Assembly (NCBI GenBank): GCA_025454525.1
Contig: JALOOG010000001.1
Location: forward strand, 1-64,000
Direction: 5' to 3'
Origin: Anaerolineae bacterium
GTDB lineage: Bacteria; Chloroflexota; Anaerolineae; Aggregatilineales; Phototrophicaceae
DNA length: 64,000 bases
Shown: piece after piece, positions 15,491 through 35,203 of the stretch
Layout of the letters: every line of letters begins with the position of its first letter
Numbering within the stretch: the stretch's first letter is position 1
Made by a program: the position numbers and the translations under genes
The notes under the pieces: model-generated
Seen by the model: the letters and a program-made list of their open reading frames with translations, nothing else
The model's database searches: none
Told to the model about the DNA's origin: nothing

Positions 15491-16552
15491 CTATAAATCC
15501 ACACGTTCCGCAAATACGATATACCGTTTGTTGTTGACCCCATACGGGTAACACGAGATCAGGGTCACAATTGCCCTATCTTGTTCTTGCATCACATAAA
15601 TATCGGTGGGATTGACGATCAGCGTATCAAACACGCGATAGGTATAGGTTTGCGTGCGCGTCTGTACCTGAAATTCATCACCAACCACCAATTGATCCAG
15701 ATCGCGGAACAATTCACCATAAATATCATTATGTGCCGCGAAAACGACGTTTCCTGTCGGATCGCTGGGGACTGCACCGTTTAACACCTGTCCAACCCCT
15801 AATTTAAGTGCTTCCCAGTCTGTCCCCTGCACGATACTTTGATCGATGTTCAGCTGTGGGATGATCAATTGCAATGGGGTTTGATCGGTCGGCGCGGGGC
15901 GGGTGATGTCGATTGGAAAATACGCTTGACGTTGCACCGTGCTTAACAGATGCGACGGCACATCGCTGATAAATTCATCAAAGTTAAATTGTGCCACACC
16001 GTTCGCATCGATAATGTGACCCCCCGGCAAGACAAAGCTCTCTAAACCCACTAATTCGATCACTGAAGTCGGAGCGAGTGTCGGGAGTCCGGCGAGGCGT
16101 TGTTCATTGGCCATGGCTTGCGCCAAGGCGCTTTCCCGCTGCAAATTGTTCGCCGTCACCATCAAATTGACCCCTAGCCAGATCAACCCACCGACCGCGA
16201 TCACTTCCACAAACAACAATGCGCGATTCGTGAAGGTTTTCCAAAGGCGACTGTTGGTTTCTGTCATCGGGGCTTCCCCGTCATCCTCAAATGACGGTGT
16301 TGGACTCCTCTCACTTAAACTGACGGCCTGGTGATCAAGGACGAGAGTGGCCGACGGGATCACCGCAGTTTCGGGTTGGCGTGTTTTTGCGATCGGCGCG
16401 GATCGTGAAACTGGGTCTACTTCTCCCCCTACCACCCGCCCATCGGATTTAAACCGTTGTAACCGTTTTTGACGTTCTTCACGACGACGAATCGCCAAGA
16501 TTCGCTCTAATTCCACGATCGAAAGTTCATCTACAGGTCGTTTATCGCGCAT
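15491..16552 (-). CDS. Sortase
   Basis: A 353-residue membrane-anchored transpeptidase. A long cytoplasmic N-terminus (1-105) precedes one TM helix at about 110-132. The sortase barrel fills about 205-353, with the catalytic His in FAAHND near 272, the catalytic Cys in TLISC near 334 and the Arg in NNKRYIV near 342. Sortases cut at LPxTG and join surface proteins to the cell wall or a pilus. The LPDTG protein at 25708-26604 is a likely substrate. The ATG at 16552 is chosen over an upstream TTG because GAGG stands 10 bases before it. Confidence 0.92.
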   Translation of the reverse strand: MRDKRPVDELSIVELERILAIRRREERQKRLQRFKSDGRVVGGEVDPVSRSAPIAKTRQPETAVIPSATLVLDHQAVSLSERSPTPSFEDDGEAPMTETNSRLWKTFTNRALLFVEVIAVGGLIWLGVNLMVTANNLQRESALAQAMANEQRLAGLPTLAPTSVIELVGLESFVLPGGHIIDANGVAQFNFDEFISDVPSHLLSTVQRQAYFPIDITRPAPTDQTPLQLIIPQLNIDQSIVQGTDWEALKLGVGQVLNGAVPSDPTGNVVFAAHNDIYGELFRDLDQLVVGDEFQVQTRTQTYTYRVFDTLIVNPTDIYVMQEQDRAIVTLISCYPYGVNNKRYIVFAERVDL

Positions 16553-16644
16553 GGCTATCAAGCCTCAACTTCAACTTTACCTTCAATATACATCCCCCAC
16601 ACCATGCAAAAGGCCAAAGGGTGATGTGTGGTTCAATTATTCGG

Positions 16645-25707: not shown

Positions 25708-26604
25708 CTAGCGGTCTACTCGACGACGGATCGTGCGTGCCATTACGATCAACCCGACTAAACCCACAGCCATCAAGGCGATTGTGCCGAAACCATCACC
25801 ACTCCCGAAACCGTCAAACAATCCGGTATCCGGTAAGGTAGGATCGGTGCGCGGACGTGGTGTGCTGAAACCCACGGCCGTCCCAGTATTACCGGGGAGC
25901 GGGATCTGCTGATCGGTTTGTTGTCCGCTAGGGGTGGGTGGATTCAATATTAATGCTAAGGCCGTAGCGGTCTGTTGAACGTCACTGATACTGATCGTCT
26001 GCGCCGGTTGAAGTGGGCCGCCTGTCCCCGGATCTTGTGTTTCGGCGGGTAACGCGGCTTGAGTCAACGCATCGCGGGTTTGTTGGAACAAGACGGCTTG
26101 TGAGGTTTCTTCTACGGCGGTCTCATTCAACGACGGGGTTTCGGTGGCCGCGATGGTCGGCGTTTCGGTTGGAGATGGAGACGGTGAGGGGGTTGGAGTC
26201 TCGGTCGGTAACGCCGCTTGGGTTTGATCCAAGAAAAATTGTTCAGTTTGAGCGGCATTGGTGAGCGTGATAATCGCTAATAAAGTCGCATTTTGGTTGG
26301 CGATCGCGGTACGAGTGGGTGAGTCAGGGGATTCAGGTTGTGGCCGTGCCAATAAGAACAAGCCCACCAAAATCAACACCACAAAGATCACCCCTAATAG
26401 GAGCGCCAACAAGACAAACCGACGGCTAGAGCCTTGATTCTCTTGCGCGGGATCGGCACCCAGATCATCGCCAAAATCGTCATCTAGACTATCAAAGCCC
26501 GTATTGGCATCGTTATCGAGATCATCGAAACTGTTAAAGTTGTTGTTTTTGTCGTTGTCGGCAAACGGATCATCATCAAAATCAAAGTCATTGCGGTTGG
26601 TCAT
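25708..26604 (-). CDS. LPDTG-anchored PT-rich surface protein
   Basis: A 298-residue protein. Residues 1-58 are Asp/Asn/Phe-rich. A TM helix at about 62-86 (RRFVLLALLLGVIFVVLILV) follows. Residues 115-245 are extracellular, low-complexity Pro/Thr/Ser/Gln. LPDTG at about 255-259, a second hydrophobic segment near 270-288 and the basic tail RTIRRRVDR form a full cell-wall sorting signal. The unusual extra N-terminal TM would leave an acidic cytoplasmic tail. The sortase in this window is the expected enzyme. The ATG at 26604 has AAGGAG 6 bases upstream. It ends the GlmL-like operon. Confidence 0.78.
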   Translation of the reverse strand: MTNRNDFDFDDDPFADNDKNNNFNSFDDLDNDANTGFDSLDDDFGDDLGADPAQENQGSSRRFVLLALLLGVIFVVLILVGLFLLARPQPESPDSPTRTAIANQNATLLAIITLTNAAQTEQFFLDQTQAALPTETPTPSPSPSPTETPTIAATETPSLNETAVEETSQAVLFQQTRDALTQAALPAETQDPGTGGPLQPAQTISISDVQQTATALALILNPPTPSGQQTDQQIPLPGNTGTAVGFSTPRPRTDPTLPDTGLFDGFGSGDGFGTIALMAVGLVGLIVMARTIRRRVDR

Positions 26605-26641
26605 CAAGTTCTCCTTCTGGTGAAAGCCTGTAATGTGTCCA

Positions 26642-27721
26642 TTAGCGGCCCAATACCTCTAGATTGGCTAACGGCACGTAAACGATCTCTCCTCCCGCAA
26701 GTTCAACCTGTGCGGACGGCACACGGAGACCATTGTCTAACAAGATCGGGTTTTTTGGCAAATCGATCACTCGCGCTGTTTGTCCGGTGTAAGGTTCACG
26801 GGTGATCCGCACGTTCATGCCGGAACGCAAGGTTAACATAATATTCGGTCTAGACGGATTTTCCCCTCCCTTGGGTGTAGTGGTATTGACGATTATCTCT
26901 GGACGGCGGGTATCCCAATTACGAGGCTGATAAGCGTCTAGGGTGACTTGCTGCCCTTCAAATTCGGTGAGTAAGTTCAATACCGGACGGCTCATGCGTG
27001 TATTGCCAAATCCTTCGGTGAGCAGGATCGCGCCGTTGGTTTTGAGCGCCATTTCTACCAGACTATAATCCATACTAGGCGCGATTATACCCGCAATCCC
27101 TTGTTCTTCCATGACACTCATCGTCAATGGCTTTAAGGAGCGTTTGGTAACGACGACCGCGCCGAGATACTTCATATCTAACTGTTCCTGCACAATGCTT
27201 TCGATCCCCGCCTCTGGTTCGATTCGCAATACCGCAATCGTGCGGCGATCATTGCCCCACACCCCTTGTAATTGCGCGCCTGTGGTCTCGATCACCGCGC
27301 TTTTACCCGCGATCACTTGTGCGATTCGCCCGCGCACCCCTGCCTCTAGATCGATAATTTGAGGCATCTCTTGGATGATCACTTGGCCGTTACCGATGTA
27401 GATCACAATGCCCTTGACGGGTGAAAACACCCGCTTACCACGAGTCGCACTGCGGCCGGCGATCGCCTGCACATCCACCACATCTCCAACGTTTACCAAC
27501 ATAAAGCGTTCTGCATCTGAGGGCCGGCGCAATCCCAACTGTTGAGCGACATCCAAGATCACATGGCGCGATGGGCGCACCCCTTGCGCGATCACTTCAC
27601 GAATATCGACCCGTTGTGATTCTTTGGCCGTAATCACCCCAGTCGCTTCTTCCGGTAGACTGACCTCACGACGGATCACGGTTGAACGAGATACATAACG
27701 TTGTTCAGGATAGTGTGGCAT
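26642..27721 (-). CDS. Conserved protein partnered with GlmL-like ATPase
   Basis: A 359-residue soluble protein without signal peptide or TM helices. I do not recognise a named family. It is rich in beta strands and Gly-Val-Ile runs. The C-terminal 60 residues look like a KOW/SH3-type barrel (TGQTARVIDLP, ending VYVPLANLEVLGR). Segments such as VFSPVKGIVIYIGNGQVII suggest further small barrels. It overlaps the end of the GlmL-like gene by 17 bases, indicating tight co-expression and perhaps a direct partnership. Upstream in-frame ATG/GTG codons up to 27745 are alternatives. Confidence 0.7.
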   Translation of the reverse strand: MPHYPEQRYVSRSTVIRREVSLPEEATGVITAKESQRVDIREVIAQGVRPSRHVILDVAQQLGLRRPSDAERFMLVNVGDVVDVQAIAGRSATRGKRVFSPVKGIVIYIGNGQVIIQEMPQIIDLEAGVRGRIAQVIAGKSAVIETTGAQLQGVWGNDRRTIAVLRIEPEAGIESIVQEQLDMKYLGAVVVTKRSLKPLTMSVMEEQGIAGIIAPSMDYSLVEMALKTNGAILLTEGFGNTRMSRPVLNLLTEFEGQQVTLDAYQPRNWDTRRPEIIVNTTTPKGGENPSRPNIMLTLRSGMNVRITREPYTGQTARVIDLPKNPILLDNGLRVPSAQVELAGGEIVYVPLANLEVLGR

Positions 27722-29606
27722 CGCGCAAATCATCCAATTCATCACGCCCGGCTTTCGCGGGGGCAGTCGGTGTGGTTGAGGTCGTAGGAGCGGTGGGGCG
27801 TGACCGTCCGAACAGACGGCGATGATCGGCTTTCGCGGGTTTATTCCCTAATGGCATTGGGAACGGATCTTCATCCTCATCCACCACTTCCAACCAACGC
27901 GGATCAAGCGGTAACACGGGATCACCGGTGGCTTCAGCGATCCACATCGGCATCTGGGTAAACCGTTGCTCTAATGATAGTGCCGAAGGTTCACCGCGTG
28001 CATCAAAGATCAAACGGCCGCCGATCACCGTTTGCCGGATGCGTCGTTTACCCCCTAATGACCCGCCTCGCGCCACATTGTTTACTTGAACTTGTGCTTT
28101 TTGTCCGATCGGCAATTGATACACAAACAGATGTCCCCCCATGACCGTCTGTTCAACGGAGTCGCCATTTTCTAGCGTGATTTTAACCTTTAATGCCGGT
28201 TTGTCGAGTCGGGGAATACCCGAAAGGTTAAAACTTGTGCCTAAATATTCAAGGTTATCCGTTTCTAACAGATGTACCACCGCTTCGGGTTGCACTGCCG
28301 CGATTGAACCCAAGGCCGCGATCAAACCGAACGGATCGCTATACAGTTGGGTGACTCCGGTCGGACGTAAGGTATCTAAGATCAATAAGGCCGTGTAACC
28401 CGCATTACCAACACCCGTTAACGCCGCACCCGCCGCGATCAACAGCTCAAATTTATCCGTTTGTGGGTGTTTCCAAGTGGGACGCGCTGCATTTAACAAC
28501 GCCACGATCGCGGCCCGTAATAGCGCGTGTTCAAGATAGGTTTCGCGCAAAGTGGTAGGAATGGTGGCCGGCCGTAGAAGCTTATTAGCCGCGTAATTGG
28601 TCAACTCTAGATCGGATATTTGAAACGGTAGCCAACGCCGAATCGCCTCTAATCCCACTGTCTTTAACAGGGTGAGGGCGTTATGGCCTAATCCTAATTC
28701 GGTGCGGATTGCAGTTTCGACATTGCCTTGAATACCCGCTGCCAACACACTCGCCGCGCTCCCGATATCCAAGGCCAAGACGTTGTGTTTACGAGTCTGG
28801 GTGAGATAGGTCACCACCGTATTGTAACTTTGTGCCGTGGGCAAGACCCCGTTTTTACTCATCGCGGTGATTGCCGCAAAATCGGTGCTACGTTTCTCTT
28901 TATAAAGATCAAAAGCTTGGGCAAGCTGATTTTGTGCCGCTTTCAACGCTTCTTCATTCAACGATGGCCGCACATTTTGCGCGATCAACACCGGGGTGAT
29001 CCCCTCAAAAGCGGTGAGAATCGCCGACTCCAACTCGGTATTGCCCGCAAAGATCACCGACGGACGACGACTCGCATCGGTTAACGAGACCGCTAAGCGC
29101 ACCAACTCTACCAATTCCATTACCGCCGATTTAGCGCCTTTTTCTGTTCCGCCCGCGATGATGATCAAATCAGGGTAATTGAGGATGATGGTGTTAAAGC
29201 GTTCTTGCTCCGTGCGTTGATCGTCCAGATGGATGGTTTCTGTGACTTGGATATAAGTGCCTGTGGCGGCCCGAATCGCACTCATCACGCTGAATTGGGG
29301 CATTAACCCAACAATCACAGCCCGCAATGGCCGACCGATGCTGGCAGTTGCGGTGAAAATATCAACACCCGACCGATCGGGACGTTCAGGTGTCATCACT
29401 TTGCCGTCGGGCCCGGTGAGCGTGCGTCCGGTGGTGTCCCCTAATTCTCGTAACACGCGGTCAAGTCCCACGGTCAAATCATTGACCGGAAATCCGTCGG
29501 TTGTGCGGGTTTGCGCCCGCGCTACTAACTGATAAGTGCCGTCCACAATATCGATCAGAACGGCGCGAGTATTCACACTACCAAAATCTACCGATAGGAT
29601 CGACAT
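27705..29606 (-). CDS. GlmL/MutL-family ASKHA ATPase
   Basis: A 633-residue protein of the glutamate-mutase accessory (GlmL) family. ASKHA nucleotide-binding motifs are visible: phosphate-1 SVDFGSVNTRA at 5-15, phosphate-2 LALDIGSAASVLAAG near 277, and an adenosine loop LLIAAGAALTGVGN near 395. The last 35 residues are a Pro/Thr-rich tail. Classical GlmL reactivates B12-dependent glutamate mutase, but glmS and glmE are absent here and the gene lies among membrane-protein genes. A role as an actin/Hsp70-like ATPase in an envelope complex is a possible alternative. Family call is from motifs and general similarity; function in this context is unknown. Confidence 0.75.
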   Translation of the reverse strand: MSILSVDFGSVNTRAVLIDIVDGTYQLVARAQTRTTDGFPVNDLTVGLDRVLRELGDTTGRTLTGPDGKVMTPERPDRSGVDIFTATASIGRPLRAVIVGLMPQFSVMSAIRAATGTYIQVTETIHLDDQRTEQERFNTIILNYPDLIIIAGGTEKGAKSAVMELVELVRLAVSLTDASRRPSVIFAGNTELESAILTAFEGITPVLIAQNVRPSLNEEALKAAQNQLAQAFDLYKEKRSTDFAAITAMSKNGVLPTAQSYNTVVTYLTQTRKHNVLALDIGSAASVLAAGIQGNVETAIRTELGLGHNALTLLKTVGLEAIRRWLPFQISDLELTNYAANKLLRPATIPTTLRETYLEHALLRAAIVALLNAARPTWKHPQTDKFELLIAAGAALTGVGNAGYTALLILDTLRPTGVTQLYSDPFGLIAALGSIAAVQPEAVVHLLETDNLEYLGTSFNLSGIPRLDKPALKVKITLENGDSVEQTVMGGHLFVYQLPIGQKAQVQVNNVARGGSLGGKRRIRQTVIGGRLIFDARGEPSALSLEQRFTQMPMWIAEATGDPVLPLDPRWLEVVDEDEDPFPMPLGNKPAKADHRRLFGRSRPTAPTTSTTPTAPAKAGRDELDDLRDATLS

Positions 29607-29609
29607 GCT

Positions 29610-30245
29610 TTATCCTCCCGTAAGCTGTGTTAACCAAAACCCGATCCGTTCGATCAAGATGGTGAGACTCGTTAGGATCGCCGCGGCATACAACGCGCCG
29701 AGTGTTGTGATAATAAAACCGAAGCCAATACCGCCTAAAGTTTTCATCAAGGGCGTGCGTTCCACGGTTCCTTGAGGCGTTTTACGCACCAGCGCATATT
29801 GAAAGTAAATCAGCGAGGTGATCACCCCGATGAATACGATCAAGGTATTCAAGAGGTTGCCTGTGAACGCATCACCGATCGTCAAAGTCAACGGGATCAA
29901 TGTCCCGGTGACGATCCCAACGAGGGCAACGGCCGCGCCTACCCCGACCAAAAACGCTAAAGCCAAATTTCCGGCTTGTCCAAGGCGGGGTGAGGTTTTA
30001 AACAACAATAGCACCCCAAACAGCACCGGAATCAGACCGATCCCGATGTTGATCGGTTGACCTGTTAAAACAGTGGATTCAAACCAAGGAATCAGCACGC
30101 TTTCGACGGTGACGATCGTGATAAAACCCGCAGTCAGACCGATCAAGGTGTAAACGGCCAAGCGATACAACGGGTTATCACCCAGCAGATAACTTAAGAT
30201 CATCAACGTGAGCGCAAAACTGGCGATCAGTGCGATGCCTTCCAT
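29610..30245 (-). CDS. Polytopic membrane protein, six TM helices
   Basis: A 211-residue hydrophobic protein with about six TM helices and short loops. I see no transporter or enzyme motif. Conserved-looking polar positions are few (ESTVLTGQ near 57, FKTSPRLG near 83). It lies 3 bases before the GlmL-like gene and 6 after the large SH3-repeat gene, so all are translated from one message. It may form a membrane platform with the other multi-TM proteins of this operon; that is inference. Confidence 0.72.
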   Translation of the reverse strand: MEGIALIASFALTLMILSYLLGDNPLYRLAVYTLIGLTAGFITIVTVESVLIPWFESTVLTGQPINIGIGLIPVLFGVLLLFKTSPRLGQAGNLALAFLVGVGAAVALVGIVTGTLIPLTLTIGDAFTGNLLNTLIVFIGVITSLIYFQYALVRKTPQGTVERTPLMKTLGGIGFGFIITTLGALYAAAILTSLTILIERIGFWLTQLTGG

Positions 30246-30251
30246 GTTTAA

Positions 30252-33200
30252 CTACCGTCCTCTGCGAATCAGGTTAAAGATATTCACCACCGCGATGATC
30301 AGGACAATGACGCTGATGCCCAAAGTCATCGCGTACCACCGTTCCTCACGATACGGGATCAATTCGGGTGCAGATGCGATCGGCGCGGGGGTAGAAGTGG
30401 GAGGGGATTGCCGTATAAAACTGATATAAACGGTTTGCCCCTCATCATCCCAGTTGGTCGAATCGTCCTCAAAATCTAACAGCGTCCCTAAGATCCACCC
30501 TTCAAGGTCATTGGCTAAGCGTACTCGATACCAAGTTTGATCGCTATTCGCCTCTAACACCAACACCCGCTCACCGGGTTGGACACTACCGACCGGCCGG
30601 AAGCCGAGACCCGCGCCTTCTCGCACATTCACCGCTTGCGACGCATTCACCCGCGCAAAAGTTTCGGTTGCAGCGTCCGTCGGAGTCGGTGGGATCGGCG
30701 TGGGGGATGGAGGTATCACCGTGTTTTCAGGGGTGAGCGTTGGGGTAACTTCTTCCGTTGCGATGATGATGATCGCATCAACGGTAGCGGTTGCGATACT
30801 CTCACCCGTGGCGATCGTCGTAGGTTGAGCCGTTGGGCTGGCAAGTGTGGGAATCGGTGTGGCTGTGGGTGTTTCGGCGATCGGAGTCGCTAACGTCGGT
30901 GTTTCAACGATCGGAGTCGCTAAGATGGGTGTTTCAACCGTTGGTGTTTCGGAAGCAGTCGCTTCTTCTGTTGGACGATCCACGCCTTCTAGGCCTTCTA
31001 GTAACACCGAATAGGTAAACGCATCTTCATAGCCGATGATCACGCCGTCAATCCCCGCGTTCAGGTAGGGCATGATTAGGGGAGATGCTGAATAACTAAT
31101 TCCCATGGTGATCGGCACATTAGTGATCGGCGCGATCTGTTCTGCCCAATTGCGGGCGCTTTCGAGACGTTCCGCAACCACCACAATCAAGGCAAAATCA
31201 TCTAATGAATTAAGCGCGAGTCCGGTAGATTGACCTTGTAAATCGTTGCTGGTCAATTGGCGGAGATTCTCGCTAAAGTCACGTAATCCGATGCTTTCTC
31301 CGGCGATATAGCCACCGATGTAATAATCAGTATTGGGTGTAAGACCGGTGATCCGTGTGACTCGTTCGCTGGCCAGCAATACGCCGATCGGATTGGTACT
31401 CACAATCACCGGACGCGCCCCGCGTAAAACGATATGATTTAACAAGACATCGCTCACGGTATTTAAATCACCCGCGGATGTTGCCCCGTATTCGGCCGCA
31501 AATAACACCAGTTGCCCCGGTTGTAACCGATCGATCTGATCAAACACCCGCTGCTCTGGGCTATTGGTTGGGAATAGGCCCGGAGGCAATTCACCAATTT
31601 GACCGATCCCAAAGAAGGGTAAGATCACCGCGATCAAGACCACGACGGCGATCAACAACCGTCCAATTTTGAGTTGTAGACGCAAGCGCGGCCGTGGTTT
31701 TGCGACCGACTCGCGTAATGCTTCCACGCCGATTGCGTCACCTGCTAAGGATGCGATTCCCGCCAATAATTGTGCGTTTTTGATCTGTTCTGGTGTCAAT
31801 TTGAGTTGATTGGTGATGCTCAACGTCCCGGGTTGGATCGGCGCGGGGGGTAACGCATCTGTAAGATCCGGGATCAAATTGGCCAAGGCCAAGTCATTTT
31901 CTACCGTTTCCGTCGGATTAAGGTTGAGTCCTTCTTCCCGTAGTGCCAATAACCGATCCGAGAGATCTTCTAGGGGACGATCTTGTTGTTTACGCACGAT
32001 CGCCGAGGCTGAAACTTCACCGACCGAGACATTCGCTAACCAATCTGGCGCAAGTGGGAGCGGGGTTTCTTCTTGTGGCGATTGTAGTTGATCAAAATCG
32101 TCGTTAAACAAGTCTTCAAAATCGATCGTGTTTGCTAGGTCGTCAAAATCCACTTGCGGGATGATCTCATTACCTGAACCTGTTCCTAATGAGGCCAAAA
32201 ATGAATCGACATCGATCGAGTCGGCTTTAGGCGGCGTTTTTGAACTAGAGGCAGTCACCGGAGCAGCTTCAAGACTCTCTAGCCAACCCAGATCATCCAG
32301 TTCATCCATAGACGATGATGAGCGGACAGGTTGCACCGGGGAAGGCGTTTCAAGTTGATCTTCACTAAATGACCAATCAAAATCATCAAAAGAAGGTTCT
32401 TCATCCTCGCTTGCAGGATCACCAAAATCCTTAAAAAGGTCAAAATCGGAGTCTAATTCTGTGGAAGCATCAGGATTCAATAATCCGGTTAAACCCGTGC
32501 CGGACGGAGCTAACGCGGCCTCATCCGACTCATCTAAAACATCGTCAGCGTTCAACAATCCGGTTAAACCTGTGCCGGATGATTGCCCCGCGAATAGATC
32601 AACTTCATCGGCTTGATCACCAAATAGATCGTTGAAAAAATCATCATCGTCGGTTGATGCGCGATCCACTCGCAACCAATCGGGAGTTTCAGCCACGTCA
32701 AGGTCATCAAAATTAAAACTTTCTACAGGTGTGTTTGTGGCAGTGGGTGTGGGCAGCCAATCAGGGTTTTCCGAAACCAGATCCTCAAAATTAAACTCTG
32801 GGGCATCGTCAAGTGTGAGATCGTCCTCTGGATCCGCCTCTGCACCCTGTAACCATGAAGGCAAGGCGCTTGTTTCTTCATCGTCAAAATTTGGCGTTTC
32901 GATGTTTCGATTGACTCCCGCAGCACGTTCCGCCGCTTCGATCTGCTCTTCGATCGCGGACTTACGTGCATTCACTTGTGGTGCTTCTTCCGTCGCTTCG
33001 GTGGGATCTTGTAACCAATTGAGTTGACCTGTCACCCCTAAACGGCGTTGCTCACCTTGTTTCGGCTCACTCGTGGGATCAGACATCCAATCAAAATTGA
33101 GATCTTCCTCGGAAGTCACACCTTGATCATCGGAATCCCGATCGCGTAGCCATGGCAATTCGCCCGTAACTCCCAAGCGTTTTTCATCGCGTTGTTTAGG

Positions 33201-33323
33201 CGCGTTTCCTTGATCACCGATCAACCAATCAAGATCGGGTTGTTCATCTTGGTTGGAGTCATCATCCTGATCGTTGGGACGACGCAACCATGACAGATCA
33301 TCATTATCGAAATCGTTGCCCAT
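30252..33323 (-). CDS. Large acidic W-L-repeat protein with SH3 domain
   Basis: A 1023-residue membrane protein. Residues 1 to about 470 are strongly acidic and hold about ten short repeats ending in WL (LSWL, LDWL, LPWL, LNWL, PSWL, PDWL), including two RRLGVTG- or KRLGVTG-type and two SGTGLTGLLN units. A TM helix lies at about 554-573. Residues 580-780 form an alpha/beta extracytoplasmic domain, followed by a PT-rich linker (800-870), a bacterial SH3 domain (about 888-951, with VNVREGAG and GWILG) and a last TM helix near 996-1017. The cytoplasmic repeats look like docking motifs; the SH3 domain may bind peptidoglycan. Function is not known. Confidence 0.75.
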   Translation of the reverse strand: MGNDFDNDDLSWLRRPNDQDDDSNQDEQPDLDWLIGDQGNAPKQRDEKRLGVTGELPWLRDRDSDDQGVTSEEDLNFDWMSDPTSEPKQGEQRRLGVTGQLNWLQDPTEATEEAPQVNARKSAIEEQIEAAERAAGVNRNIETPNFDDEETSALPSWLQGAEADPEDDLTLDDAPEFNFEDLVSENPDWLPTPTATNTPVESFNFDDLDVAETPDWLRVDRASTDDDDFFNDLFGDQADEVDLFAGQSSGTGLTGLLNADDVLDESDEAALAPSGTGLTGLLNPDASTELDSDFDLFKDFGDPASEDEEPSFDDFDWSFSEDQLETPSPVQPVRSSSSMDELDDLGWLESLEAAPVTASSSKTPPKADSIDVDSFLASLGTGSGNEIIPQVDFDDLANTIDFEDLFNDDFDQLQSPQEETPLPLAPDWLANVSVGEVSASAIVRKQQDRPLEDLSDRLLALREEGLNLNPTETVENDLALANLIPDLTDALPPAPIQPGTLSITNQLKLTPEQIKNAQLLAGIASLAGDAIGVEALRESVAKPRPRLRLQLKIGRLLIAVVVLIAVILPFFGIGQIGELPPGLFPTNSPEQRVFDQIDRLQPGQLVLFAAEYGATSAGDLNTVSDVLLNHIVLRGARPVIVSTNPIGVLLASERVTRITGLTPNTDYYIGGYIAGESIGLRDFSENLRQLTSNDLQGQSTGLALNSLDDFALIVVVAERLESARNWAEQIAPITNVPITMGISYSASPLIMPYLNAGIDGVIIGYEDAFTYSVLLEGLEGVDRPTEEATASETPTVETPILATPIVETPTLATPIAETPTATPIPTLASPTAQPTTIATGESIATATVDAIIIIATEEVTPTLTPENTVIPPSPTPIPPTPTDAATETFARVNASQAVNVREGAGLGFRPVGSVQPGERVLVLEANSDQTWYRVRLANDLEGWILGTLLDFEDDSTNWDDEGQTVYISFIRQSPPTSTPAPIASAPELIPYREERWYAMTLGISVIVLIIAVVNIFNLIRRGR

Positions 33324-33326
33324 GCG

Positions 33327-33977
33327 CTACTCCCGATAGGAACGTTCTAAACCAATTAAGACGCGGACACCCGCTACCAAGGTTGCTAAGGCGATCCCTA
33401 ATAAGATCCCGCGTGCGCCTGCATTCACAGGTACGGTTAACAACCAATCGCGCACTTGGGTGACGACGGCAAATTCACCCAACGGGATCGCCCCGATTAA
33501 GACGATCAAGACCACACCCACAAACCAAATACTGGTTAATGAGCGCCGTCGGCGGGTAATCGTTGCTGCACCATACACGAGTGCAAACAACAAGAGCGCC
33601 GCTAACGCCGACTCGATCGAAATTTGCAAGTTTTGTAAGATCACAAAGCCACTGGCGCGTTGTACTACATACATCCCGATCACTAGGAAAAAACTTAAGA
33701 TCAAGGCGACGCTATAAAAAGCGTTAGAGCGTCGGGTCACGATGCGCTCCACATGCACAGCCAACAAATTTAAAATGCCAATGAACAGGGTTAACGCGAT
33801 CGTGATCGCCGCGATTCGTAAGAGGATCGTCGCTTGGGTACGGATGCCTAACCCGGTGACTAACGTGGATAGCAGGCCTAATTGATCACCCACCAATAGC
33901 CCTAAAACGGTGATGATCCCGGCGCTAATGGTGATCGCGACACTCAGAATTGACCAGAAATTAGTGGAACGTCTCAC
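33327..33977 (-). CDS. Polytopic membrane protein, six TM helices
   Basis: A 216-residue integral membrane protein with about six TM helices and basic loops (TRRSNAFYS, TRRRRSL). It is not recognised beyond that. Size and topology resemble the other 211-residue membrane protein of the operon, though no clear sequence repeat between them is visible. It sits 3 bases after the DUF6754-like gene and 3 before the W-L-repeat gene. Confidence 0.72.
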   Translation of the reverse strand: MRRSTNFWSILSVAITISAGIITVLGLLVGDQLGLLSTLVTGLGIRTQATILLRIAAITIALTLFIGILNLLAVHVERIVTRRSNAFYSVALILSFFLVIGMYVVQRASGFVILQNLQISIESALAALLLFALVYGAATITRRRRSLTSIWFVGVVLIVLIGAIPLGEFAVVTQVRDWLLTVPVNAGARGILLGIALATLVAGVRVLIGLERSYRE

Positions 33978-33980
33978 GGA

Positions 33981-34736
33981 TTACACTCCATTGAGCAGCG
34001 ATAAGCCCATCAAAATTAACAACGCGGCGATCAGCACCCACCGCAATAAATCGATCGTGATCGTTTGCCCCATTTGACTAGCGCTATCGCTCAAATATGC
34101 GCCTGCTTGGAAAATCTCCTCACCGATCAACGGATAATCGGCAAATACAAAGGCGATCGCTTGGCCTTCCAATTGATCGCTCACCGCAATTGAAGGCAGA
34201 TCGCGCCGTAAACCCGCTTCCATCATCAATGCGAGTTCGGGGCCAAACCGGCCGGCAAATACATTCGCCGAAACCCGATCATCGCCCATAATGGAGGCGA
34301 TCGCGGCTGCATAGGTTAATGAACGTGCGCCGGCCGGATACCAACGCACATTGGTATTCCGAAAACGATCGATCCGTCCACGCGATTGATAAGCACGGCG
34401 TAAGGTGTCTTGACCGAACGGCAAAAGACTCGTGTTGCTCATGGTGATCAACGGTGCAACATCACCGACCGCGTTTCGTTGTGCAATCTGATAAAACAAT
34501 TCCGCGCTGGCCAAAGAGAGTAAGGTCGAGGGGCCGGTCAGTTCAGCGCTCCCAAAGGATAATTGTAGCGGTCGATTGGACTCGATCGCAAATCCGACAA
34601 ATTCCGGGATCATCTGATAAGCAGGGATCGGGCGCAAAAGAGCGCGACGACGGCGTGCGATCTGTGTTGTGATCATGGTTACACTGAGTGCCAAAACGAT
34701 CACCAAAAGCCCTAAAACTTGCGTTGTCGCGTCCAC
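33981..34736 (-). CDS. DUF6754-like membrane protein
   Basis: A 251-residue protein with TM helices at both ends (5-25 and 228-248) and a central alpha/beta domain. The pattern (FGSAELTGPSTLLSLASAELF, NVRWYPAGARSLTYAA, SDQLEGQAIAFVFADYPLIGEEIFQAGAYL) recalls the DUF6754 family; I recall this from memory and am only moderately sure. The central domain of the W-L-repeat protein has a similar texture (AAEYGATSAGDLNTVSDVLL). The start is GTG. It follows the 75-residue gene by 8 bases. Confidence 0.62.
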   Translation of the reverse strand: MDATTQVLGLLVIVLALSVTMITTQIARRRRALLRPIPAYQMIPEFVGFAIESNRPLQLSFGSAELTGPSTLLSLASAELFYQIAQRNAVGDVAPLITMSNTSLLPFGQDTLRRAYQSRGRIDRFRNTNVRWYPAGARSLTYAAAIASIMGDDRVSANVFAGRFGPELALMMEAGLRRDLPSIAVSDQLEGQAIAFVFADYPLIGEEIFQAGAYLSDSASQMGQTITIDLLRWVLIAALLILMGLSLLNGV

Positions 34737-34744
34737 ACAACCCC

Positions 34745-34972
34745 CTAATCCTCTTGTAACTGTTGTTGAAGTGCTTCGATCCCGCCGGGTGTTTCAAGGG
34801 CTTGTGCGATGTCTTGAATCGGCGCGCCCCAACCTAAGATCCCGAAGGTGGGTTGTAGCACATACAGCAGATTTGCGCCAAATGCCCCAAATGGTTCGAG
34901 AATCGTCAAACCCCATGAGATGATCCCGGCTAAACCACGTACTTTGATTTGGGTAATCCAATGTTCATCCAT
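34745..34972 (-). CDS. Small hypothetical protein, 75 residues, leaderless
   Basis: First gene of the eight-gene operon. The product has a hydrophobic central region (about 10-50) that may be one TM segment or an amphipathic hairpin, and a polar tail ending in Gln/Glu. The ATG at 34972 lies 7 bases after a TATACT box with no ribosome-binding site between, so the message probably begins at the start codon. A longer in-frame version would start inside or before the promoter. I do not recognise the family. Confidence 0.6.
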   Translation of the reverse strand: MDEHWITQIKVRGLAGIISWGLTILEPFGAFGANLLYVLQPTFGILGWGAPIQDIAQALETPGGIEALQQQLQED

Positions 34973-34979
34973 GCACGGG

Positions 34980-34985
34980 AGTATA
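34980..34985 (-). promoter_or_regulatory. -10 box of the GlmL-like operon
   Basis: TATACT on the minus strand ends 7 bases before the ATG of the first gene. Transcription would start at or next to that ATG, giving a leaderless mRNA for the operon. A TTGAGT element further upstream is too far away (22 bases) to be a good -35. Confidence 0.55.
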
Positions 34986-35203
34986 ACACAGGGTGTAAAG
35001 AGGCGAAACTCAACTTTGCCAAACATTTGATAAACAGGCGGGATCAGGCGAGTCAGGTCTATGCAACATTTTGAGCGTTTTCAACGTCTATGATGAGATC
35101 GTTGACTTCTCGTAGGATTGGCGTTGAGTAAAGTTCGGGCTTTTGTCTGATACTCAACATCAGGAAACTTTGTTAGAATTAGCGTTAGCGCAGGAATCAC
35201 AAG

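What the first reader, a model, noticed from the sequence alone, without database searches (positions are those of the whole stretch)
25708..34985. Eight-gene operon: GlmL-like ATPase, DWL-repeat SH3 protein, multi-TM proteins and LPDTG protein
Genes are spaced 3-34 bases or overlap, with one promoter and one terminator. The GlmL-like ASKHA ATPase has no mutase genes nearby. It is embedded with a beta-rich soluble protein, three integral membrane proteins, a giant protein with cytoplasmic acidic W-L motifs and an outer SH3 domain, and a sortase substrate. This looks like a membrane-spanning machine linking a cytoplasmic ATPase to the cell wall, not B12-enzyme repair. This is my best candidate for an undescribed system.
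Basis: partly seen in the sequence, partly recalled or inferred. Interest (0 to 1): 0.72.

Follow-up and report, generated by a model that had tools for sequence, protein, structure and literature searches.

The report
Undescribed multi-phylum actin-fold ATPase membrane system
Seven genes in a row encode what looks like a membrane-spanning machine driven by an actin-fold ATPase; the same genes in the same order recur in several distantly related bacterial phyla, yet none of the parts has a known job, so this may be an overlooked basic component of many bacterial cells.

Summary
The window (Chloroflexota) carries a compact operon. Its core is seven genes: g8 (small), g7 (DUF6754), g6 (6 TM), g5 (WL-repeat/TM/outer domain), g4 (6 TM), g3 (MutL/GlmL-family ASKHA ATPase) and g2 (barrel-sandwich + swivelling + KOW domains). 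g1 (LPDTG) is a lineage add-on. In 151 Chloroflexota genomes, all 38 with DUF6754 also encode the ATPase. It is adjacent in 30; in the other 8 the contig ends. Outside the phylum the same families recur in Armatimonadota (51 of 61 sampled genomes), Planctomycetota, Bacillota, Eisenbacteria, Cloacimonadota and others. g7-g6-g5-g4 occurs as an unbroken, never reordered cassette in 56 loci; g3-g2 lies before it, after it or apart. No B12 mutase accompanies this ATPase, whereas true GlmL in the same phylum sits beside mutase genes. Pfam, NCBIfam, PADLOC, PDB and open-access papers name no system. Topology puts the g7 domain and WL arm inside and the Rossmann-like g5 domain outside. Best reading: an undescribed ATP-dependent transmembrane complex, with the ATPase and its KOW adaptor acting on a four-protein membrane module. 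Cargo and output are unknown. The cell-wall link is a lineage-specific addition, not the core.

The parts
34745..34972 (-). g8: small protein (75 aa from ATG), first gene. Counterparts occupy the slot just before g7 in Chloroflexota, and before g3 or g7 in other phyla (motif ..PAILFLE..KPLSFIGSQ..).
   Evidence: profile of non-Chloroflexota g8 finds the slot-mate in most Chloroflexota loci (E 1e-24 to 1e-3), the window's own copy only weakly (E 0.5) but related to L045/L070 by a window-based profile
33981..34736 (-). g7: DUF6754 protein, TM - cytosolic domain - TM
   Evidence: PF20539 1.9e-30; positive-inside rule 3.8 vs 0.6 K/R
33327..33977 (-). g6: six-TM protein, N-in, no Pfam family
30252..33323 (-). 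g5: cytosolic acidic WL-repeat arm, TM, outer Rossmann-like domain, T/P-rich linker with SH3_3, TM
31704..33323 (-). g5 WL-repeat arm (about residues 1-540); in Chloroflexota relatives usually Zn-ribbon + up to ~70 PxWL repeats
30990..31571 (-). g5 conserved outer domain (about residues 585-778), Rossmann-like model, pLDDT 90
30477..30635 (-). SH3_3 domain of g5 (residues 897-949)
   Evidence: Pfam 4.7e-11
29610..30245 (-). g4: six-TM protein, no Pfam family
27705..29606 (-). g3: MutL/GlmL-family ASKHA ATPase with extra C-terminal ~130-aa domain (DARGRP motif region)
   Evidence: PF13941 7.8e-53; phosphate motifs DFGSVNT and DIGS
26642..27721 (-). g2: soluble adaptor: barrel-sandwich hybrid + swivelling beta/alpha/beta domain + KOW domain
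25708..26607 (-). g1: acidic N-terminus, TM, T/P-rich region, LPDTG, TM, RRR; lineage-specific add-on
   Evidence: relative with LPNTG in L045
25659..25692 (-). intrinsic terminator
34980..34988 (-). possible extended -10 promoter (TGTTATACT), implying a leaderless transcript; not confirmed
   Evidence: read by eye; not found by scan

Best explanation
The seven core genes encode one envelope complex. Shown here: the genes form a strongly conserved unit with a fixed membrane cassette g7-g6-g5-g4 and an ATPase pair g3-g2 that is adjacent or elsewhere in the same genome. Inferred from topology and folds: g6 and g4 (6 TM each) form the membrane core, the DUF6754 domain of g7 faces the cytosol, and the Rossmann-like domain of g5 faces outwards. 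The ASKHA ATPase g3, with the three-domain adaptor g2, docks on the cytosolic face (most likely through g7 and g8). ATP-dependent opening and closing of its actin-like fold is passed through the membrane core to the outer domain of g5, either to do work (moving or assembling an envelope component) or as an assembly switch. In Chloroflexota a Zn-ribbon/WL-repeat arm was added to g5, probably as a multivalent tether for cytosolic partners. In Ktedonobacteria, which lack DUF6754, the same arm is a separate soluble protein beside g3. Cargo and cellular output are not known. My estimates: unit is real 0.97; undescribed 0.85; ATPase acts on the membrane module 0.65; transmission to the outside as described 0.4.
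For: All 38 Chloroflexota genomes with DUF6754 encode the ATPase (37 by PF13941, G105 by my own profile). It is adjacent in 30; in the other 8 the operon runs into a contig end. 25 of 30 genomes reached through the ATPase in other lineages also have DUF6754, and of the five without it three are Ktedonobacteria; 51 of 61 Armatimonadota genomes have it. g7-g6-g5-g4 occurs in this order in 56 runs with no permutation; g3-g2 lies before it (15) or after it (21). Tandem duplicates of the whole cassette occur in L192 and L201. Distance matrices of the six larger proteins over 36 loci correlate at r 0.87-0.95 (shared ancestry contributes). Topology by the positive-inside rule. Folds: g2, g5 outer domain. 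ATP-site motif DxGxxxT in 29 of 33 g3 sequences by pattern.
Against: No interaction was shown: there was no complex prediction and no experiment. g3-g2 also occurs without the membrane cassette (Ktedonobacteria: DUF6754 absent from three genomes), so the pair must have some role of its own or another membrane partner. In Chloroflexales g2 is encoded elsewhere. g4 and g6 show no conserved charged residue pattern that would suggest ion or substrate transport. No motor precedent is known to me for the MutL/GlmL branch of ASKHA proteins.
Confidence: 0.5

Rival explanations
1. Repair or reactivation of a B12-dependent mutase (ordinary GlmL role), with unrelated membrane genes nearby.
For: g3 belongs to the same Pfam family as GlmL; the genome has four B12-binding matches elsewhere.
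Against: 80 bits against a GlmL cut-off of 475; extra C-terminal domain; no B12-binding domain on the window's contig; no mutase among recurrent neighbours in over 120 loci; true GlmL in the same phylum is 469-470 aa and sits beside MutE or B12-binding genes, without g2.
Confidence: 0.03
2. Cell-wall-anchoring or adhesion machine: the ATPase drives or holds a link from the cytosol to the peptidoglycan through the SH3 domain and the LPDTG protein.
For: SH3_3 in g5 and LPDTG in g1, LPNTG relative in L045, sortases in the genome.
Against: Among the g5 sequences read, the SH3 insert was seen only in the window; g1 was detected in one of the first 20 loci; most phyla have a 270-290 aa g5 without either.
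Confidence: 0.15
3. Transport or secretion system: g4/g6 form a path, g3 supplies energy or acts as a chaperone, g5 is the outer gate or receptor.
For: Two 6-TM proteins plus an ATPase and an outer domain; tandem paralogous cassettes in one genome (L192, L201) would fit different substrates.
Against: No dedicated substrate gene recurs beside the cassette; no transporter family match; ASKHA ATPases are not known to drive transport.
Confidence: 0.2
4. Cytoskeletal or division-associated scaffold: g3 polymerises like FtsA/ParM and g5's arm recruits partners to the membrane.
For: Actin fold; membrane tethering; Ktedonobacterial scaffold tails (e.g. RGLFEAIREWLSR, RRGWRRIFGR) and Chloroflexales g3 tails look like the membrane-targeting tails of FtsA or MinD (resemblance recalled, not tested).
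Against: FtsA is present in all 151 genomes, so g3 is not its replacement; no division gene is a recurrent neighbour.
Confidence: 0.15
5. Function tied to glycine cleavage or lipoyl metabolism.
For: gcvPB lies beside g8-g3-g2 in 8 loci, among them Cloacimonadota, WOR-3, TA06 and Eisenbacteria; L143 has gcvT, gcvH (read from sequence) and lipoate ligase around the full cassette; the g2 N-domain is lipoyl-like in fold.
Against: Restricted to a minority of loci; not seen in Chloroflexota, Armatimonadota or Brocadiales loci.
Confidence: 0.05
6. Gliding motor of filamentous Chloroflexota, whose mechanism is not established.
For: Present in Chloroflexus and Herpetosiphon genomes, which glide (PMC13104615; identity of G118 and G110 rests on replicon length, own knowledge).
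Against: Near-universal in Armatimonadota and present in Planctomycetota and Bacillota, groups not known for gliding; pili are the published proposal for Chloroflexales (PMC7332563).
Confidence: 0.03

Closest known systems
GlmL / MutL (methylaspartate mutase accessory protein, NF040745; Pfam PF13941)
   Same: Same ASKHA family and ATP-site layout
   Different: Far below the GlmL cut-off, extra C-terminal domain, partner g2 and membrane cassette instead of a B12 mutase
DUF6754 (PF20539)
   Same: g7 is a member; best-scoring members are in the other phyla found here
   Different: No function or partner assigned to the family anywhere that could be searched
FtsA / PilM type membrane-tethered actin-fold ATPases
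   Same: Actin-fold ATPase acting at the membrane with peptide-like or TM partners (analogy only)
   Different: No sequence match of g3 to FtsA or PilM families; partners are multi-TM proteins; FtsA is encoded separately
RnfC/NqrA barrel-sandwich and NusG/Spt5 KOW domains (g2)
   Same: Domain folds: NqrA Z 8.3 over 63 residues, KOW Z about 9 over 50
   Different: Domain combination not found in one known protein; no cofactor or RNA-polymerase partner implied
RCK/KTN nucleotide-binding domains (g5 outer domain)
   Same: Rossmann-like arrangement, Z about 10 over 120 residues, rmsd about 3
   Different: 9-16% identity, domain faces outwards, no GxGxxG motif seen; a shared arrangement only

Membership tests
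GlmL (NF040745, B12-mutase accessory protein) | score above the curated cut-off (475 bits) | tested here: not met
   80.3 bits
GlmL (NF040745, B12-mutase accessory protein) | encoded with a B12-dependent mutase | tested here: not met
   no B12-binding domain on the contig; none among recurrent neighbours; true GlmL controls do have it
MutL superfamily PF13941 | score above gathering cut-off | tested here: met
   180.3 vs 27 bits
DUF6754 PF20539 | score above gathering cut-off | tested here: met
   106.3 vs 27 bits
FtsA | g3 is the genome's FtsA | tested here: not met
   a separate FtsA lies on contig C16 (E 7.8e-125); g3 matches only MutL in Pfam at E up to 0.1
PilMNO / type IV pilus or type II secretion platform | PilM, PilN or PilO families in the operon | tested here: not met
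   no such Pfam or NCBIfam match at E up to 0.1
Known anti-phage defence systems | component matches a PADLOC model | tested here: not met
   no match except a weak low-complexity hit of g1
Sortase substrate (g1) | LPxTG, hydrophobic segment, basic tail, and a sortase in the genome | tested here: met
   LPDTG..RTIRRRVDR; three sortases
Sortase substrate (g1) | actual anchoring to the wall | not testable with these tools
   needs cell fractionation
ASKHA ATPase | ATP hydrolysis | not testable with these tools
   phosphate-1 pattern DxGxxxT found in 29 of 33 relatives; window has DFGSVNT and DIGS
RCK/KTN domain (g5 outer domain) | nucleotide-binding Rossmann domain of that family | tested here: inconclusive
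   fold similarity only, Z about 10; no sequence match

The most novel reading that the evidence does not exclude
An undescribed, widely inherited class of ATP-powered transmembrane machine, in which an actin-fold (MutL-type) ATPase with a KOW/barrel-sandwich adaptor does work across the cytoplasmic membrane through a four-protein DUF6754 module, spread over several bacterial phyla and near-universal in Armatimonadota.
Probability: 0.4. Interest if true: 0.9.

Novelty: categorically new. Interest (0 to 1): 0.77.

Why it matters
A seven-gene unit with conserved order, shared by several phyla and near-universal in at least one, would normally be a named cellular machine. This one has no name: g4, g6, g5, g2 and g8 have no Pfam or NCBIfam family of their own, and g7 is a DUF. 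None of the 14 control genomes has DUF6754, which may explain why it was overlooked. If the complex is real it is a candidate core envelope system of Chloroflexota, Armatimonadota, Brocadiales and FCB-group lineages, and it would give the MutL branch of ASKHA ATPases a function other than B12-enzyme repair. It also makes a direct test possible: purify one complex and see what it holds.

Tried and rejected
B12 repair: rejected. FtsA replacement: rejected, FtsA is present in all 151 genomes. g7 and g5 as paralogues, g6 and g4 as paralogues (suggested by their repeating 2TM-6TM-2TM-6TM layout): no profile-profile signal. Known solved relatives of g4, g6, g7: none. Plasmid spread of DUF6754: none found. 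Defence system: no PADLOC match. Literature: no paper in the open-access library mentions DUF6754 or PF13941; broader text searches gave nothing relevant; subscription papers and preprints could not be searched. A genome-wide scan with the full g3 alignment failed for lack of conserved stretches and was repeated with a closer subset, so very divergent members are under-sampled. The g5 fold matches (RCK/KTN, Z about 10) and g2 domain matches (Z 8-10) are shared arrangements and do not show function.

Full report
WHAT IS IN THE WINDOW. The window is contig C202 of a 5.24-Mb genome. On the minus strand, between a sugar ABC transporter and a MacB-like ABC transporter on the plus strand, eight ORFs follow one another with gaps of 3-34 bases or a small overlap. 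I number them from the 3' end: g8 (75 aa), g7 (251), g6 (216), g5 (1023), g4 (211), g3 (633), g2 (359-367), g1 (299). A good intrinsic terminator follows g1. A promoter is only suggested by an extended -10 at 34988-34980, seven bases before the first ATG; the scan did not find it.

FAMILIES. g3 is a MutL-family protein (PF13941, 7.8e-53) and g7 is DUF6754 (PF20539, 1.9e-30); g5 has one SH3_3 domain; the others match no Pfam or NCBIfam family convincingly. g3 is not GlmL itself (80 bits against 475). Profile searches of solved structures by sequence find a KOW domain at the C-terminus of g2 and a barrel-sandwich-like N-terminus, confirmed by weak Pfam hits in a relative (RnfC_N, Biotin_lipoyl, KOW).

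CO-INHERITANCE WITHIN THE PHYLUM. Of 151 Chloroflexota genomes, 38 have DUF6754. All 38 encode the ATPase: 37 by PF13941 and G105 by a profile made here. In 30 the two genes are within a few kilobases on one strand; in the other 8 the DUF6754 gene sits at the end of a contig with the operon running off it (contig lengths). 20 loci were read in full: the order is g7-g6-g5-g4-g3, with g2 next except in Chloroflexales, where it is elsewhere. g5 is always the gene between g6 and g4. It has two TM segments around a conserved ~220-aa domain, preceded in most Chloroflexota by a Zn-ribbon and a long arm of PxWL repeats, up to about 70, or by nothing in the short forms (294-299 aa).

A SECOND ARRANGEMENT. 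In other Chloroflexota the pair g3-g2 occurs without the membrane cassette nearby, often preceded by a soluble Zn-ribbon protein, in Ktedonobacteria full of PxWL repeats. Three Ktedonobacteria genomes lack DUF6754 altogether. So the WL arm goes with the ATPase pair even where the membrane module is missing. The tails of these scaffolds and of Chloroflexales g3 (e.g. RGLFEAIREWLSR, KRGFFRRK) look like membrane-targeting tails of FtsA or MinD; that is recalled resemblance, not a test.

OUTSIDE THE PHYLUM. A scan of 84,980 species genomes with a g3 alignment returned 479 relatives, of which the best 80 were kept. They lie in Armatimonadota, Bacillota, Planctomycetota (Scalindua, Brocadiaceae), Poribacteria, Latescibacterota, Eisenbacteria, Cloacimonadota, WOR-3, TA06, Gemmatimonadetes and Chloroflexota (names are those of the records, many are MAGs). 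Profiles made from Chloroflexota alone recognise g2, g7, g6, g5 and g4 in these loci with E-values down to 1e-100. In Planctomycetota and others the order is g3-g2-g7-g6-g5-g4, a cyclic permutation of the window's order. Where the cassette was not beside g3, 25 of 30 genomes still had DUF6754 elsewhere, and there it was again followed by g6, g5, g4. Across everything read, 56 runs contain g7-g6-g5-g4 in that order and none in another. Two loci carry the cassette twice in tandem (L192, L201). In Armatimonadota 51 of 61 sampled genomes have DUF6754, and none of 14 control genomes does. Distance matrices of the six larger proteins over 36 loci correlate at 0.87-0.95, as expected of one inherited unit, though shared ancestry alone also produces such correlation.

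THE SMALL PROTEIN. A profile of the small proteins just before g3 outside Chloroflexota finds the ORF just before g7 in most Chloroflexota loci (E 3e-24 to 3e-3). The window's own g8 is too diverged to be found by that profile (E 0.5) but lies in the same slot and is related to those of L045 and L070. I count it as the seventh component, with that reservation for the window copy. A small 2-TM protein, weakly PH-like, is an eighth partner in Bacillota and Armatimonadota.

TOPOLOGY AND FOLDS. The positive-inside rule puts the DUF6754 domain inside (3.8 K/R after TM1 against 0.6 before) and the g5 domain outside (3.2 before TM1, 0.8 after; 3.6 after TM2), in and out of Chloroflexota alike. g6 is N-in. 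The g2 model (pLDDT 88) shows a barrel-sandwich part, a swivelling beta/alpha/beta domain (nearest RraA, phosphohistidine-type and aconitase-X domains, Z 8-10) and a KOW domain (Z about 9). The g5 outer domain model (pLDDT 90) is Rossmann-like, nearest MT0777 and RCK/KTN domains (Z 9-11, rmsd about 3, identity about 10%). These are shared arrangements and do not by themselves show function.

TESTS OF THE B12 EXPLANATION. The window's 188-kb contig has no B12-binding domain. In the neighbour clustering over more than 120 loci no mutase recurs. The two controls, real GlmL proteins in the same phylum (G089, G060), are 469-470 aa, lack g2, and sit beside MutE or B12-binding genes.

CONTEXT CLUES. 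Recurrent neighbours outside Chloroflexota are gcvPB in 8 loci, tsaE/tsaB/rimI/tsaD and alr in Bacillota, and SpoIVB-type peptidase in Brocadiales. They are lineage-bound and I give them little weight.

HOW IT MOST LIKELY WORKS. The anatomy fits a complex with a cytosolic actin-fold ATPase and a soluble three-domain adaptor, a cytosolic docking domain held by two TMs (g7), a membrane core of two 6-TM proteins, and an outward Rossmann-like domain held by two TMs (g5). I infer that nucleotide-dependent opening and closing of g3 is passed through g2 and g7 to the membrane core and to g5. Whether that does mechanical work, gates something, or builds the complex cannot be told. Shown: the unit, the order, the topology signals, the folds at model level. 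Inferred: that the proteins form one complex and that ATP turnover drives it.

NOVELTY. g3 belongs to a known family and g7 to a known DUF, but no known system has this composition. I found no paper on it in the open-access library, which is not proof that none exists. I rate it categorically new as a system, with the output unknown.

Noticed in passing
L216 (G000:C75:1-8082), also L212: Another protein of the window's own genome carries the same acidic PxWL repeats (LPDWLIEQ, LPDWLRDD, MPDWLREQ, DPLAWLESL), with an apparent TPR-like end, just before an rRNA dimethyltransferase (RsmA/KsgA-like) gene. The WL motif may be a general docking motif in these bacteria.
   Followed up: partly
L051-L055, L160-L170: Ktedonobacteria have a soluble Zn-ribbon/PxWL scaffold ending in a basic-aromatic, membrane-targeting-like tail just before the ATPase pair, and lack DUF6754.
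   Followed up: partly
L036, L037: The ATPase of Herpetosiphonales-like genomes carries its own PxWL motifs and a basic-aromatic C-terminal tail.
   Followed up: no
L124, L127, L128, L131, L134, L135, L144, L147, L143: Glycine-cleavage P-protein gene beside g8-g3-g2 in FCB-group loci; L143 has gcvT, gcvH and a lipoate ligase around the full cassette.
   Followed up: partly
L192:3980-13154, L201:5019-12146: Two tandem copies of g7-g6-g5-g4; in L192 they follow ExbB/ExbD/TonB-like genes. G165 has five DUF6754 matches.
   Followed up: no
L123:606-7148: Two tandem g3-g2 pairs in one Bacillota contig.
   Followed up: no
L096, L097, L099, L101, L104, L105, L106, L115, L128, L131, L143; also L191, L198, L202, L205, L208: A ~165-aa 2-TM protein with a weak bacterial PH-domain match precedes g8 and may be another component outside Chloroflexota.
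   Followed up: partly
window 15491-16561 (-): Sortase gene (PF04203, 4.6e-30), a possible processor of the LPDTG protein.
   Followed up: yes
L071-L076: In Chloroflexales g2 lies apart from the operon, mostly beside response-regulator genes or near ATP synthase genes.
   Followed up: no
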